From contig NZ_VFNX01000001.1 of assembly GCF_006715785.1 (NCBI RefSeq), positions 3,176,501 to 3,240,500 on the forward strand: a DNA stretch of 64,000 nucleotides. Direction: 5' to 3'. Below, piece after piece: positions 18,095 to 62,511 of this stretch. Position numbers and translations under genes: made by a program. Under the pieces are notes generated by a model. That model had not been told where the DNA came from and ran no database searches. It saw nothing but the letters and a program-made list of their open reading frames with translations. Positions within the stretch are counted from its first letter, which is position 1. Each line of letters opens with the position of its first letter. Origin of the DNA: Streptomyces puniciscabiei (GTDB lineage: Bacteria; Actinomycetota; Actinomycetes; Streptomycetales; Streptomycetaceae).

Positions 18095-18148
18095 TGATCC
18101 ACAACCAACTCGGTTTATCCACAGGCAAATTGACTGACCTGTGGACAA
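18095..18148. promoter_or_regulatory. Small DnaA-box cluster upstream of kptA
   Basis: Two perfect Streptomyces-type DnaA boxes, TTATCCACA at 18115-18123 (+) and TTGTCCACA at 18140-18148 (reverse strand), with a one-mismatch box TGATCCACA at 18095-18103. They lie between the end of the hydrolase-dehydrogenase gene and kptA, in a stretch richer in A/T than its surroundings. Confidence 0.75.
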
Positions 18149-25306: not shown

Positions 25307-25393
<87 letters not shown>

Positions 25394-25583: not shown

Positions 25584-26384
25584 CTAAGACAGCAACCGCT
25601 CCAGCACCACCGCGATCCCGTCCTCCTCGTGGGAGGAGGTAACCTCGTCGGCCACCGCGCGGAGATCCTCATGGGCGTTGGCCATGGCTACGCCCCGGGC
25701 CGCCCAGGCGAACATCGGGATGTCGTTGGGCATGTCGCCGAAGGCGATCGTGTCCGTGGCCTTCAGGCCGAGACGGCGGGCGGCGAGAGACAGCCCCGTG
25801 GCCTTGGACAGGCCCAGCGGGAGGAGTTCCACGATGCCCTCGCCCGCCATGGCCACGGTGACGAAACCGCCGGCGGCCTGCCGGGCGGCCTCCGCCAGCT
25901 CGTCGTCGCCCAGCGTCGGATGCTGTATGTAGATCTTGCCCAGCGGAGCAGCCCAGAGGTCGGACGCGTCCGTGAACGGGGTCGCCGGCAGCGTGCCCGT
26001 GACCGCGTAACCGGGTCCCACCAGTACCTCGCCGTCGAGCCCGTCCCGGCTGGCCGCCAGGTACAGCGGACCCACCTCGGCCTCGATCTTGGCCAGGGCC
26101 ACGCCCGCCAGCTGCCGGTCCAGGGTGACCGAGGTCAGCAGGCGGTGCGCCCCGGCGTCGTAGACCTGCGCGCCCTGGCCGCAGACGGCGAGGCCCTTGT
26201 AGCCGAGGTCGTCCAGGATGGGCCGGGTCCACGGGGCCGCGCGGCCGGTGACGACGATGTGGGCCGCGCCCGCCGCGGTGGCCGCGGCGAGCGCGTCACG
26301 GGTGCGCTGCGAGACCGACCCGTCGGAGCGCAGGAGCGTTCCATCGAGGTCGGTCGCGATCAGCCGGTAGGGAAAGCCGGTCAC
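25584..26384 (-). CDS. Cof-type HAD hydrolase (second copy)
   Basis: 266 residues from GTG 26384, which overlaps the serS stop as GTGA, so it is translationally coupled to serS. Motif [12 protein letters not shown], motif [13 protein letters not shown], motif III-region Lys in GLSKATGL, motif [17 protein letters not shown] Cof-type phosphatase of unknown substrate. Its coupling to serS, as in several streptomycetes I recall, may reflect shared expression rather than a shared pathway. It is paralogous to the gene at 15469. Confidence 0.92.
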
Positions 26385-27658
26385 TTGGCGACCGGCTCCA
26401 GGACCTCCCGGCCGCCCAGGTACGGGCGCAGCACCTCGGGGACCCGGACCGAGCCGTCGGCCTGCTGGTGGTTCTCCAGGATCGCCACGATCGTGCGCGG
26501 GACGGCGCACAGCGTGCCGTTGAGCGTGGCGAGCGGCTTGACCTGCTTGCCGTCGCGGACCCGGATGGACAGCCGGCGGGACTGGAACTCGGTGCAGTCC
26601 GAGGTGGAGGTCAGCTCGCGGTACTTGCCCTGGGTCGGGATCCAGGCCTCGCAGTCGAACTTGCGGGAGGCCGAGGCGCCGAGGTCACCGGAGGCGACGT
26701 CGATGACGCGGAACGGCAGCTCCAGCGAGGTCAGCCACTGCTTCTCCCACTCCAGCAGCCGCTGGTGCTCGGCCTGGGAGTCCTCGGGCGCGACGTACGA
26801 GAACATCTCGACCTTGTCGAACTGGTGCACGCGGAAGATGCCCCGCGTGTCCTTGCCGTGCGAGCCGGCCTCGCGGCGGAAGCAGGGCGAGAAGCCCGCG
26901 TACCGCAGCGGCAGCCTGTCCGCGTCGATGATCTCGTCCATGTGGTAGGCCGCCAGCGGGACCTCGGAAGTGCCGACCAGGTACAGGTCGTCCTTGTCGA
27001 GGTGGTAGACGTCCTGGGCGGCCTGGCCGAGGAAGCCGGTGCCGGCCATGGACTGCGGGCGGACCAGCGCCGGGGTGAGCATCGGGGTGAAGCCGGCCGC
27101 GGTGGCCTGGGCGATGGCCGCGTTCACCAGGGCCAGCTCCAGCAGGGCGCCGACACCGGTGAGGAAGTAGAAGCGGGAGCCGGAGACCTTGGCGCCGCGC
27201 TCGACGTCGATGGCGCCGAGCAGCTGGCCGAGCTCCAGGTGGTCCCTGGGCTCGAAGCCCTCGGCGCCGAAGTCGCGGATCGTGCCGTGCGTCTCCAGCG
27301 TGGCGAAGTCCTCCTCGCCGCCGACGGGCACGTCGGGGTGGACGAGGTTGCCGAGCTGGAGCAGCAGCTCCTGAGTCTCGGCGTCGGCCGCGTCGCGCTC
27401 GGCGTCGGCGGCCTTGACGTCGGCGGCGAGCTGGCTCGCCCGCTTCAGCAGCTCGGCCTTCTCGTCGCCGGTGGCCTTGGGGATGAGCTTGCCGAGCTGC
27501 TTCTGCTCGGCGCGCAACTCGTCGAAGCGGACGCCGGAGGACCTGCGCCGCTCGTCGGCAGACAGGAGGGAGTCGACGAGCGCGACGTCCTCTCCACGGG
27601 CGCGCTGGGACGCGCGCACACGGTCGGGGTCCTCACGGAGCAGGCGAAGGTCAATCAC
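26381..27658 (-). CDS. serS: Seryl-tRNA synthetase
   Basis: A class II synthetase charging tRNA-Ser. 425 residues from GTG 27658 ([18 protein letters not shown]); an upstream frame extension is rejected. The N-terminal coiled-coil arm (about 30-100) is followed by catalytic motifs: motif 2 [21 protein letters not shown] (key residues FRREAG and RGIFRVHQF) and motif 3 [18 protein letters not shown] (key Arg in VPRT). No T-box leader is visible. It overlaps the HAD gene; upstream lies a DnaA-box cluster. Two tRNA-Ser(GCT) genes and a tRNA-Ser(TGA) gene occur in the same window. Confidence 0.97.
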
Positions 27659-28240
27659 GAGGCCAAGGCTACCGGTGCGGGCTTGCCGCTCACGAATCAC
27701 TATTACGCCGAGTTCGTATTCGCCATACTTTGTCGCTTACGTTCCGTTATGAGCGAATTGCACAACGTGTCGGAACTTATCGGTACCCGTCAAGGAAAAG
27801 TGTCTCACTCCCTGGGACGGGGCAGCGCTCCGGCGCCGGGTTGACCGGATTCCCTTGTGGAGAACGGGACTTCGCAAGCGTGCTGTCCACAGGGATCCAC
27901 ACCCCCGGGAGAGTTATCCACAGGCTGTGTGGAAGGTCTGTGGATTTCGGAATTGATCACTCCGGATCCTTGTGGCGGACCGAAGAATTCCCAGGGCAAA
28001 CCCGGTTCACACCCACTTTTGAGTGGAAAGCGGTCGCTCCAAAAGATGAATCAATGGAAACGAGTGGACGAAGGGTGAGCTGCGGGGCAGTGGCCGCATC
28101 GGGGGCGTCGGGGGCGATTTGTCGACCGACTCACGCACCCTTGTCGACTTGTCCCCAGGTCGAGAAGCGGACCTGTGGATAACTTCTGTGGATAACGAAG
28201 ATATGCAGGTAGTACTGGCTGGAAGCAGTCTACGGTCGGC
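27659..28240. promoter_or_regulatory. Gene-free region with a DnaA-box cluster between pheA and serS
   Basis: 582 bases, notably less GC-rich than the neighbours. Perfect boxes TTATCCACA occur at 27914-27922 (+), 28174-28182 (-) and 28187-28195 (-). One-mismatch boxes are CTGTCCACA 27883-27891, TTGTCCCCA 28149-28157 and TTCTCCACA (reverse, 27856-27864). Weaker copies lie at 27893-27901 and 27939-27947. The 3' part (27660-27790) should hold the serS promoter. DnaA-box clusters outside oriC that affect replication have been reported in S. coelicolor; this may be the counterpart of one. Confidence 0.8.
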
Positions 28241-29176
28241 TCAGAACCGGCCGTCCTGGCAGCGCGCCACCCAGTCCGCCGCCGCCATGAACTCCTCGTC
28301 CGAGGTCCCCGCCCGGGTCGCCGGAGCCTCCGCCGGCCCGATGTCCGCACGCGGGTAGGAGCCGAGGAAACGCACCTGCAGGCAGATCCGCTTCAGGCCC
28401 ATCAGCGCCTCCGCCATCCGCCGGTCGGAGATATGGCCCTCGGCGTCGATGCAGAAGCAGTAGTTGCCGATGCCGGCGCCGGTCGGCCGGGACTGCAGCA
28501 GCATGAGGTTGATCCCTCGGGAGGCGAACTCCCCCAGCAGGTCGCGCAGCGCGCCGGGGTGGTCGTCGCGCTGCCACAGCACGACCGAGGTCTTGTCGGC
28601 GCCGGTCGGTGCGGCGGGCCGGGCCGGACGGCCGACCAGCACGAACCGGGTCTGCGCGGTCTCCGGGAAGTCGTGGATCCCGGTCTCCAGGGCATCGAGA
28701 CCGTACCGAGAGGCGGCGAACTCGCCCGCGAAGGCGGCGTCGTACCGGCCCTCCTGGACCAGCCGGGCCGCGTCCGCGTTGGAGGCGGCCGACTCCCAGG
28801 CGGCGTCGGGAAGGTTCTTGCGCAGCCAGTTGCGCACCTGCGACTGGGCCGCCGGGTGGGCGGAGACGGTCTTGATGTCCGACAGCTTGGTGCCGGGCCG
28901 GACCAGCAGCGCGAAGGTGATCGACAGCAGCACCTCGCGGTAGATCATCAGCGGCTCGCCGGCGACCAGTTCGTCCAGGGTGGTGGTGATGCCGCCCTCG
29001 ACCGAGTTCTCGATCGGCACGAACGCCGCCTCGGCCTCCCCGGCCCGCACCGCGTCCAGCGCGGACTGCACCGACACATACGGGACGAGTTCCCGGGTGG
29101 CCGCTTCCGGGAGCGTCCGCAGGGCCACCTCGGTGAAGGTGCCCTCCGGGCCGAGATACGCATAGCTCGCTGGCAT
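28241..29176 (-). CDS. pheA: Prephenate dehydratase
   Basis: Converts prephenate to phenylpyruvate, the committed step to phenylalanine. 311 residues. The dehydratase domain (about 1-185) has YLGPEGTFTE, PIENSVEGGI and the catalytic TRFVLVGR; the regulatory ACT domain (about 200-285) has LWQRDDHPGALRDLLGEF and LMLLQSRPTGAGIGNYCFC-type sequence (key GNYCFCID), which binds Phe for feedback inhibition. Monofunctional, without chorismate mutase. ATG 29176 follows GGTGAGGAC. It appears monocistronic. Confidence 0.97.
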   Translation of the reverse strand: MPASYAYLGPEGTFTEVALRTLPEAATRELVPYVSVQSALDAVRAGEAEAAFVPIENSVEGGITTTLDELVAGEPLMIYREVLLSITFALLVRPGTKLSDIKTVSAHPAAQSQVRNWLRKNLPDAAWESAASNADAARLVQEGRYDAAFAGEFAASRYGLDALETGIHDFPETAQTRFVLVGRPARPAAPTGADKTSVVLWQRDDHPGALRDLLGEFASRGINLMLLQSRPTGAGIGNYCFCIDAEGHISDRRMAEALMGLKRICLQVRFLGSYPRADIGPAEAPATRAGTSDEEFMAAADWVARCQDGRF

Positions 29177-44066: not shown

Positions 44067-44746
44067 CGTGGGTGTCTCCCGGTTACGGCGCTTCTCGTAC
44101 GGGCGGGAGCCTAGCCGTTCAGGCCATGACCGGCGGGAACCTGTGGACAACGCACGCCCGCTCGACGCCAACGGTGTGAACCTGTGGAGAACTTCGGGGC
44201 GTCCCCGACTCGCCGCAGCGTCTTCCGAGGAGGGGTCCTGGCTCACCGGCCCGGCTCTCGACCGCCGGTCCGGTCCAGGTCGGGTGGTGCCGGCTTTCGT
44301 CCGGTGGTTCTGGCTTTCGGGCGCCGTGCGGTCTGTCGGGCCGACGTCGGGTGGTGCCGGCCCTCGTCCGCCCGTCCCGCCCTCGGGCACCGACCGGCCT
44401 GTCCGGCCGACGTCCGGTGGTCCTGGCCCTCGTCCGCCGGTCCCGCCTCGGGCTCCGTCTGCCGGGACCGGCTTCAGGCCTCCGTCCGGCGGCGCGGGTC
44501 ACGGTGCGCGTCCGCCGGTCCAGGATCTCGCGCTCCGTCCGCCGGTCCTGGATCTGGCGCTCCGCTTGCCAGGCTCGGCTCTCAGGCTCCGTTCAGCTGG
44601 TCCGGTTCCTCGACCGCGTCCTTCGGACCGGTGTCGTTCACCGCGTGACCCAGGTCCTCGAAAATGACCGTCGGTCCGGTGTCCCGGGTCGCGCGGTGCC
44701 AGGGCCTCGATCAGGCCCGGCGCGTCCAACTCGCCGACCGTGTCCG
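44067..44746. other. Gene-free repetitive stretch
   Basis: 680 bases between two minus-strand genes. A perfect DnaA box TTGTCCACA (reverse) lies at 44142-44150 and a one-mismatch box at 44183-44191. From 44280 to about 44475 there are about three degenerate direct repeats of 66-67 bases, starting TCGGGTGGTGCCGG (44280), TCGGGTGGTGCCGG (44347) and TCCGGTGGTCCTGG (44413). Both strands are open in places, but the translations are Pro/Arg/Gly repeats without family features, so I call no gene. Confidence 0.55.
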
Positions 44747-48209: not shown

Positions 48210-48297
48210 GGTGGGTTGCCCGAGCGGCCTAAGGGAACGGTCTTGAAAACCGTCGTGGCGCGAGTCACCGTGGGTTCAAATCCCACACCCACCGCCA
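48210..48297 (+). tRNA. tRNA-Ser(TGA), CCA encoded
   Basis: Acceptor GGTGGGT/ACCCACC, discriminator G and an encoded CCA at 48295-48297. Anticodon stem ACGGT/ACCGT with loop CTTGAAA (TGA); long variable arm as expected of serine tRNAs; T arm GTGGG-TTCAAAT-CCCAC. A strong hairpin terminator follows. Confidence 0.96.
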
Positions 48298-62145: not shown

Positions 62146-62236
62146 GGAGGCGTCGCCTAGTCCGGTCTATGGCGCCGCACTGCTAATGCGGTTTGGGCCT
62201 TAAAGCCCATCGAGGGTTCAAATCCCTCCGCCTCCG
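62146..62236 (+). tRNA. tRNA-Ser(GCT)
   Basis: Acceptor GGAGGCG/CGCCTCC with discriminator G, anticodon stem CCGCA/TGCGG with loop CTGCTAA (GCT), long variable arm GGGCC-TTAAA-GCCC, T arm GAGGG-TTCAAAT-CCCTC. CCA is not encoded. All stems pair fully. Confidence 0.96.
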
Positions 62237-62244
62237 CACCGATC

Positions 62245-62277
62245 CCGAAGCCCCGGTCCCCAGGACCGGGGCTTCGG
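62245..62277 (+). terminator. Terminator after tRNA-Ser(GCT)
   Basis: CCGAAGCCCCGGTCC at 62245-62259 pairs with GGACCGGGGCTTCGG at 62263-62277 (15 bp). Confidence 0.85.
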
Positions 62278-62350
62278 CGTTCCCACCCTCCGCCGCCCCA
62301 CAGCCCCCTGCGGGCGTTTCCGCAGGTCACAAGGGGTGTGCCAATCGGAT

Positions 62351-62379
62351 TTCACATGTCGGCGGCAGTCATGTAATGT
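62351..62379 (+). promoter_or_regulatory. Likely promoter of tRNA-Arg
   Basis: TTCACA at 62351-62356 and TAATGT at 62374-62379, spacing 17, some 60 bases before the tRNA. Confidence 0.6.
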
Positions 62380-62438
62380 TCTTCCTGTCGCCGGGACGGG
62401 CCGAAAGGGCCGAAACGGAGACAAGAACAAAAGAACAA

Positions 62439-62511
62439 GCACTCGTAGCTTAACGGATAGAGCATCTGACTACGGATCAGAAGGTTGCAGGTTCGAATCC
62501 TGCCGAGTGCG
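62439..62511 (+). tRNA. tRNA-Arg(ACG)
   Basis: Acceptor GCACTCG/CGAGTGC with discriminator G, D arm GCTTAACGGATAGAGC, anticodon stem TCTGA/TCAGA with loop CTACGGA (ACG), T arm GCAGG-TTCGAAT-CCTGC. CCA is not encoded. Confidence 0.97.

What the first reader, a model, noticed from the sequence alone, without database searches (positions are those of the whole stretch)
27856..28195. DnaA-box cluster between pheA and serS
Three perfect TTATCCACA boxes and at least three one-mismatch boxes occur within 340 bases in a gene-free, less GC-rich region. DnaA-box clusters outside oriC that influence replication timing or copy number have been reported in S. coelicolor; from memory, one lies in cosmid D78, which I believe covers this neighbourhood. 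This may be its counterpart and may titrate DnaA.
Basis: partly seen in the sequence, partly recalled or inferred. Interest (0 to 1): 0.7.

Follow-up and report, generated by a model that had tools for sequence, protein, structure and literature searches.

The report
DnaA-binding control element near replication origin
A 340-base stretch between two housekeeping genes carries strong binding sites for the protein that starts chromosome copying; a site of this kind sits at the same place in most sampled relatives of its bacterial family and probably helps to hold back or time the start of replication, as reported for one such site in Streptomyces coelicolor.

Summary
The cluster is real and not chance: 3 perfect TTATCCACA boxes plus 3 boxes one mismatch from TT(G/A)TCCACA (strictly against TTATCCACA: 1 at one mismatch, 4 at two). 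It lies between serS and pheA, about 80 kb from oriC.

A cluster sits 3' of pheA in 15 of 17 sampled genera of the family (80 of 80 named Streptomyces loci) and in 0 of 20 loci examined outside it. In 184 of 212 loci (9 genera) it has a two-arm plan: A and B (+, 12-13 bp apart), about 260 bp, C and D (inverted, 29-33 bp apart). Six genera have other arrangements. Non-box blocks are conserved too, including the predicted ScbR2 site of S. coelicolor serS and a GGANTGATCANTTCC palindrome. B-C length changes fall near multiples of 10.5 bp more often (14 of 19 independent pairs) than in neighbouring intervals (38 of 96). The cluster stays by pheA where serS is displaced.

Best reading: counterpart of the S. 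coelicolor D78 cluster (identity recalled; paper not held), probably titrating DnaA, perhaps through a looped two-arm complex. DnaA binding, titration and looping are inferred, not shown.

The parts
27856..28195 (.). whole DnaA-box element, between serS and pheA
28187..28195 (-). box A, TTATCCACA (left arm)
   Evidence: a box within 2 mismatches lies 12-13 bp before B in 158 of 183 loci
28174..28182 (-). box B, TTATCCACA (left arm)
28142..28157 (+). conserved block TGTCGACTTGTCCCCA (serS sense TGGGGACAAGTCGACA) holding a weak box TTGTCCCCA at 28149
   Evidence: exact in 145 of 183 loci; weak box
28116..28126 (+). conserved block GATTTGTCGAC (serS sense GTCGACAAATC)
   Evidence: GTCGACANATC in 146 of 183 loci
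28052..28081 (-). spacer block aligned with the predicted ScbR2 site of S. coelicolor sco3961
   Evidence: site from PMC4595836 Table 2; position in genome G223; TTCGTCCA core in 105 of 183 loci
28013..28026 (.). inverted repeat CCACTTTTGAGTGG in the spacer
   Evidence: consensus within 2 mismatches in 114 of 183 loci
27949..27963 (.). palindrome GGAATTGATCACTCC (serS sense GGAGTGATCAATTCC), factor unknown
   Evidence: within 2 mismatches in 131 of 183 loci, 126 of them at -41 from C
27939..27947 (-). weak box AAATCCACA next to C
   Evidence: TCCACAG at -22 from C in 175 of 183 loci
27914..27922 (+). box C, TTATCCACA (right arm, inverted relative to A and B)
27883..27891 (+). box D, CTGTCCACA, 31 bp from C
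   Evidence: C-D spacing 29-33 bp in 184 loci, 30 or 31 in 170
27856..27864 (-). box E, TTCTCCACA, 58 bp from C
26381..27658 (-). serS, seryl-tRNA synthetase (neighbour, not part of the element)
   Evidence: Pfam
28241..29176 (-). pheA, prephenate dehydratase (neighbour, not part of the element)
   Evidence: Pfam

Best explanation
An oriC-proximal DnaA-binding element of the Streptomycetaceae-type family, the counterpart of the cluster reported as D78 in S. coelicolor. DnaA binds two inverted arms (A, B and weaker sites; C, D, E and weaker sites) about 25 helical turns apart. Kept on matching faces of the helix, the bound arms can be bridged into one looped complex. Lying 80 kb from oriC it is copied soon after initiation and then takes up DnaA, so that oriC, built of weaker boxes, does not fire again too soon. 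Shown here: the boxes, their rarity, their conservation, the two-arm plan in most loci, the distance to oriC, the lack of perfect boxes in oriC, and non-random length steps. Inferred: DnaA binding, bridging, titration and the effect on initiation.
For: Boxes exceed every one of 2000 shuffles; 3 of the genome's 17 perfect boxes; oriC-like region beside dnaA has 25 boxes within 2 mismatches and none perfect. Conserved at this place in 80 of 80 named loci and 15 of 17 genera. B-C-D plan in 184 of 212 loci; B-C 259 or 260 bp in 115 of 184. Length steps near n x 10.5 bp: 14 of 19 independent pairs against 38 of 96 in eight neighbouring intervals, Fisher p 0.006. Cluster kept by pheA where serS is displaced. 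Held reviews: S. coelicolor clusters close to oriC repress untimely initiation (passages); S. lividans DnaA domain I with a long domain II was proposed to link distant box clusters in oriC (passage).
Against: No binding, copy-number or looping data. Identity with D78 is recalled. Two genera (g2, g5; 7 loci) have no boxes there, and six genera (g3, g4, g10, g11, g14, g15) lack the B-C-D plan. C-to-serS is phased as well (30 of 45 pairs), which titration alone does not predict. Some spacings are out of step (255, 263, 274). Constant distance from oriC may only reflect gene order. One review doubts that such clusters matter much in B. subtilis (passage).
Confidence: 0.72

Rival explanations
1. 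DnaA-responsive control region of serS: the DnaA complex, in helical phase with the serS promoter, couples seryl-tRNA synthetase expression to replication state. It could coexist with titration.
For: The element lies directly upstream of serS in most loci; C-to-serS length changes prefer steps near 10.5 bp, 30 of 45 independent pairs.
Against: The cluster stays beside pheA where serS is displaced or not in the locus (L118, L128, L130, L133, L136, L202, L213), with a polysaccharide-deacetylase gene on the other strand in between in L130 (Pfam) and by sequence likeness in L128 and L136. ScbR2 binding in S. coelicolor went with an unchanged serS level (0.947).
Confidence: 0.12
2. A datA- or DARS-like element: it changes the nucleotide state of DnaA (hydrolysis or exchange) rather than only binding it, with a partner protein at the conserved palindrome.
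For: Fixed spacing and conserved non-box blocks, including a GGANTGATCANTTCC palindrome in 131 of 183 loci, go beyond what simple titration needs.
Against: No biochemical data and no known partner; sequence alone cannot tell binding from catalysis. Perfect boxes fit titration equally well.
Confidence: 0.12
3. A conserved structured RNA (serS leader or pheA 3' region).
For: The serS-sense strand folds better than shuffles, z -2.54, 1 of 100 shuffles as good.
Against: The inverted box arms by themselves make such a fold; no Rfam match up to E 1. A conserved AATAGTG block lies 46-47 bp from the serS start in the 58 of 183 loci where it was found; if it belongs to the promoter (inference) the element lies upstream of the transcript.
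Confidence: 0.03

Closest known systems
D78 DnaA-box cluster of S. coelicolor (Smulczyk-Krawczyszyn et al. 2006, J Bacteriol 188:6184; title seen in reference lists, content recalled)
   Same: DnaA-box cluster outside oriC but close to it; strong boxes; a S. coelicolor-type genome has the cluster between the same genes.
   Different: Nothing known to differ; identity of place not verified. The two-arm plan, length steps and ScbR2-site overlap described here could not be compared with the paper.
datA of E. coli
   Same: Cluster of DnaA boxes outside oriC; reviews call the S. coelicolor cluster analogous (passage).
   Different: datA works with IHF and promotes DnaA-ATP hydrolysis (passages); neither was tested here. 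No sequence relation was looked for.
DnaA-box clusters (DBCs) of B. subtilis
   Same: oriC-proximal clusters whose joint deletion advances initiation (passages).
   Different: Six clusters act together there; here one element with a fixed inverted two-arm plan, conserved at one place in the family.
Streptomyces oriC
   Different: Not beside dnaA, and few strong boxes instead of many weak ones.

Membership tests
Streptomyces D78-type oriC-proximal DnaA-box cluster | several DnaA boxes outside oriC, near oriC | tested here: met
   3 perfect and 3 one-mismatch boxes, about 80 kb from the oriC-like region
Streptomyces D78-type oriC-proximal DnaA-box cluster | same genomic place as S. coelicolor D78 | tested here: inconclusive
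   cluster present between serS and pheA in a genome with the exact sco3961 ScbR2 site; cosmid assignment recalled, paper not held
Streptomyces D78-type oriC-proximal DnaA-box cluster | higher DnaA affinity than oriC | not testable with these tools
   only the box strengths fit: perfect boxes here, none in the oriC-like region
Streptomyces D78-type oriC-proximal DnaA-box cluster | deletion raises initiation frequency | not testable with these tools
   needs an experiment; effect recalled from the 2006 abstract and stated in general form in reviews
datA / DARS (E. coli) | needs IHF (or Fis) and changes the DnaA nucleotide state | not testable with these tools
   no biochemical data; a conserved palindrome of unknown factor is present
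oriC | lies beside dnaA | tested here: not met
   dnaA is about 80 kb away and has its own box-rich region beside it

The most novel reading that the evidence does not exclude
The element is a looped, two-arm DnaA regulatory platform of this family. A developmental regulator (ScbR2, EMSA-confirmed at the S. coelicolor serS upstream region, its predicted site lying in this spacer, with serS expression unchanged) and an unknown factor at the GGANTGATCANTTCC palindrome act on loop formation, tying antibiotic/gamma-butyrolactone signalling to replication initiation.
Probability: 0.2. Interest if true: 0.8.

Novelty: new member of a known kind. Interest (0 to 1): 0.52.

Why it matters
It gives a replication-control element known from one species a fixed address across most of a bacterial family, and an anatomy that can be tested: two inverted arms, a spacer that changes in near-helical steps, and two conserved non-DnaA sites. 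It raises a testable link between ScbR2 signalling and DnaA, and a place where chromosome copy number in antibiotic producers might be tuned.

Tried and rejected
Phasing, first try: with C-to-serS as control, B-C showed no excess (resampling p 0.48), and I noted it as unproven. Two intervals beside a tRNA gene (7 of 17 and 6 of 16) and eight neighbouring intervals in up to 61 loci, 60 genomes plus the window (54 of 129) showed no preference over the 42% expected. Three of those eight behave as coding, with all length changes multiples of three; without them the pair control is 23 of 64. One single control interval reached 8 of 13. pheA-to-B is only weakly phased (28 of 50, p 0.03), and 11-bp tandem copies are visible there in L003. 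Element pairs come from 183 loci and control pairs from 61, so sampling differs; in the 61 loci B-C gave 8 of 8 changes, C-serS 21 of 27, pheA-B 18 of 32.

Rows dropped before counts: L081 (the window's own copy); L088 from the phasing and motif counts (spacing 308 caused by N in the assembly); 28 of 212 loci without a recognised B-C-D set are in neither the phasing nor the 183-locus motif counts, so those counts are conditional on the plan; 8 loci without serS are absent from the interval set but present in the tally. Several genera are represented by one genome (g4, g6, g10, g12, g15, g17). An earlier count said 15 families outside; the correct number for the 20 loci is 9.

Second copies: none found in the own genome or in the plasmid and phage collections. 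RNA explanation: no Rfam match in the region. Papers: eight term searches. None of the titles and openings listed places D78 at serS/pheA; the ChIP-seq search listed one paper on methods for finding origins, the ScbR2 plus DnaA search one transcriptome paper; both were seen as listings only.

Full report
OBSERVATION. The window lies at C1:3176501-3240500 of a 9.1-Mb genome whose nearest named relatives at pheA are Streptomyces. Counted against both TTATCCACA and TTGTCCACA (the S. coelicolor high-affinity box in PMC4285127; passage) three further boxes have one mismatch: 27856, 27883, 28149. Strictly against TTATCCACA there is one such box and four with two mismatches. None of 2000 dinucleotide-preserving shuffles reached the observed 3, 4 and 8 boxes at 0, <=1 and <=2 mismatches. 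The genome has 17 perfect boxes; among the 100 of 102 TTNTCCACA places listed this is the only group of four within 350 bp.

POSITION. The dnaA match lies at C1:3125550-3126035. Beside it, C1:3124290-3124854 holds 25 boxes within two mismatches of TT(G/A)TCCACA, none perfect; I take it as oriC from box density and place, dnaN was not looked for. The element is about 80 kb away. In 42 genomes of the genus the pheA-dnaA distance is 79-105 kb, median 85 kb. Of 11 genomes of other genera eight lie at 68-105 kb and three further off: two of g14 (195 and 251 kb) and one of g3 (161 kb) (from coordinates). Shared gene order could explain the constancy.

CONSERVATION. Each of the 80 named loci has at least two perfect and at least three <=1-mismatch boxes. 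In one search (at least three <=1-mismatch boxes, one perfect, within 1 kb 3' of pheA): 80 of 80 named loci, 84 of 89 further loci of the genus (the five exceptions have two perfect boxes) and 43 of 50 loci of 16 other genera; the seven misses are the loci of g2 (3) and g5 (4). So 15 of 17 sampled genera have a cluster there. Outside the family searched 108 genomes; 20 of them (9 families) were laid as loci and examined. None has a cluster, one (L319) has a single one-mismatch box, and 8 of the 20 have serS in the locus. pheA-serS neighbourhood is thus found outside the family without the element.

ANATOMY (serS sense). Box A, box B 12-13 bp on, both +; about 260 bp; box C and box D 29-33 bp on, both -; E (+) 58 bp from C in the window. 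B, C and D were recognised in 184 of 212 loci, which fall in 9 genera (g1, g6-g9, g12, g13, g16, g17). Clusters of g3, g4, g10, g11, g14 and g15 are arranged otherwise: g14, for example, keeps a + box and a - box about 245 bp apart, has no D, and has + boxes about 37 and 58 bp further on. The identity of boxes varies while places hold: in several genera C is TTGTCCACA and D TTATCCACA. Blocks beyond the boxes are kept (183 loci with the plan): TGGGGACAAGTCGACA after B (145 exact), GTCGACANATC (146), TTCGTCCA (105), CCACTCGAAAGTGG within 2 mismatches (114), GGANTGATCANTTCC within 2 mismatches (131, 126 of them at -41 from C), TCCACAG at -22 from C (175). One shuffle per locus gave 0 for each.

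SPACING. B-C is 259 or 260 bp in 115 of 184 loci; most other values lie near 248-249, 267-271, 278-282, 290 and 301-303, with a few out of step (255, 263, 274 twice; 308 is an assembly gap). The chance level for 'within 2 bp of n x 10.5' among changes of 5-47 bp is 18 of 43 values, 42%. On a serS tree 24 of 29 B-C changes fit. With path-disjoint pairs of genomes 14 of 19 fit (binomial p 0.005; Fisher against eight neighbouring intervals, 38 of 96, p 0.006). C-to-serS fits too (30 of 45 pairs, Fisher p 0.002) and pheA-to-B weakly (28 of 50, p 0.04). Against me: my first test, with C-to-serS as control, showed no difference, reconstructed changes are less independent than pairs, and controls come from fewer genomes. 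I take this as moderate evidence that the arms, and perhaps the serS promoter, are held on defined faces of the helix.

LINK TO S. COELICOLOR. PMC4595836 (passages and the figures-and-tables section seen) lists sco3961 serS among ScbR2 targets confirmed by EMSA, with a MEME-predicted site and a serS fold change of 0.947; it is not in the ScbR table. That 28-base site occurs exactly in genome G223 and within two mismatches in 8 of 392 genomes of the genus. In G223 it lies between B and C of an element with boxes A to E. PMC6585502 names SCO3962 as pheA (passage). So the locus exists in a S. coelicolor-type genome and its centre coincides with a predicted regulator site. That the published D78 cluster is this locus is recollection; the paper is not held and a search for its cosmid name found nothing on it.

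FUNCTION. Held reviews say that S. coelicolor and B. subtilis clusters close to oriC repress untimely initiation, like datA (passages); [quoted passage not shown] subtilis (passage). Strong boxes here and only weaker ones in the oriC-like region fit titration (inference). S. [quoted passage not shown] Control of serS alone is unlikely: the cluster stays beside pheA where serS is displaced or absent from the locus (L118, L128, L130, L133, L136, L202, L213). The phasing towards serS keeps a double role open.

NOVELTY. As an element it is a new member of a known kind, probably the ortholog of a studied one.

Noticed in passing
window 18095-18148: A second small group: TGATCCACA, perfect TTATCCACA and TTGTCCACA within 54 bases.
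   Followed up: no
window 44142-44191: TTGTCCACA and TTCTCCACA 41 bases apart on the same strand.
   Followed up: no
G000 C1:3067300-3220691 (window included from 3176501): 26 of the genome's 102 TTNTCCACA boxes lie in this stretch of about 153 kb around dnaA (hand count, which lists 100 of 102), many as close pairs.
   Followed up: partly
L221 5653-5867 (G000 C1:3098652-3098866): Another cluster, two perfect boxes and one TTGTCCACA within 215 bases, about 27 kb from dnaA on the side away from the window.
   Followed up: partly
genomes of g2 and g5: Genera without the pheA cluster: 6 of 7 genomes have a perfect inverted pair of TTATCCACA with starts 31 bases apart elsewhere; perhaps a displaced or different element.
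   Followed up: no
L128, L130, L136 (genus g3), between element and serS: A polysaccharide-deacetylase-like gene on the opposite strand separates the element from serS (Pfam run on L130 only).
   Followed up: partly
window 62146-62511, 48210-48294, 25307-25392: Four tRNA genes found by Rfam; ordinary.
   Followed up: no
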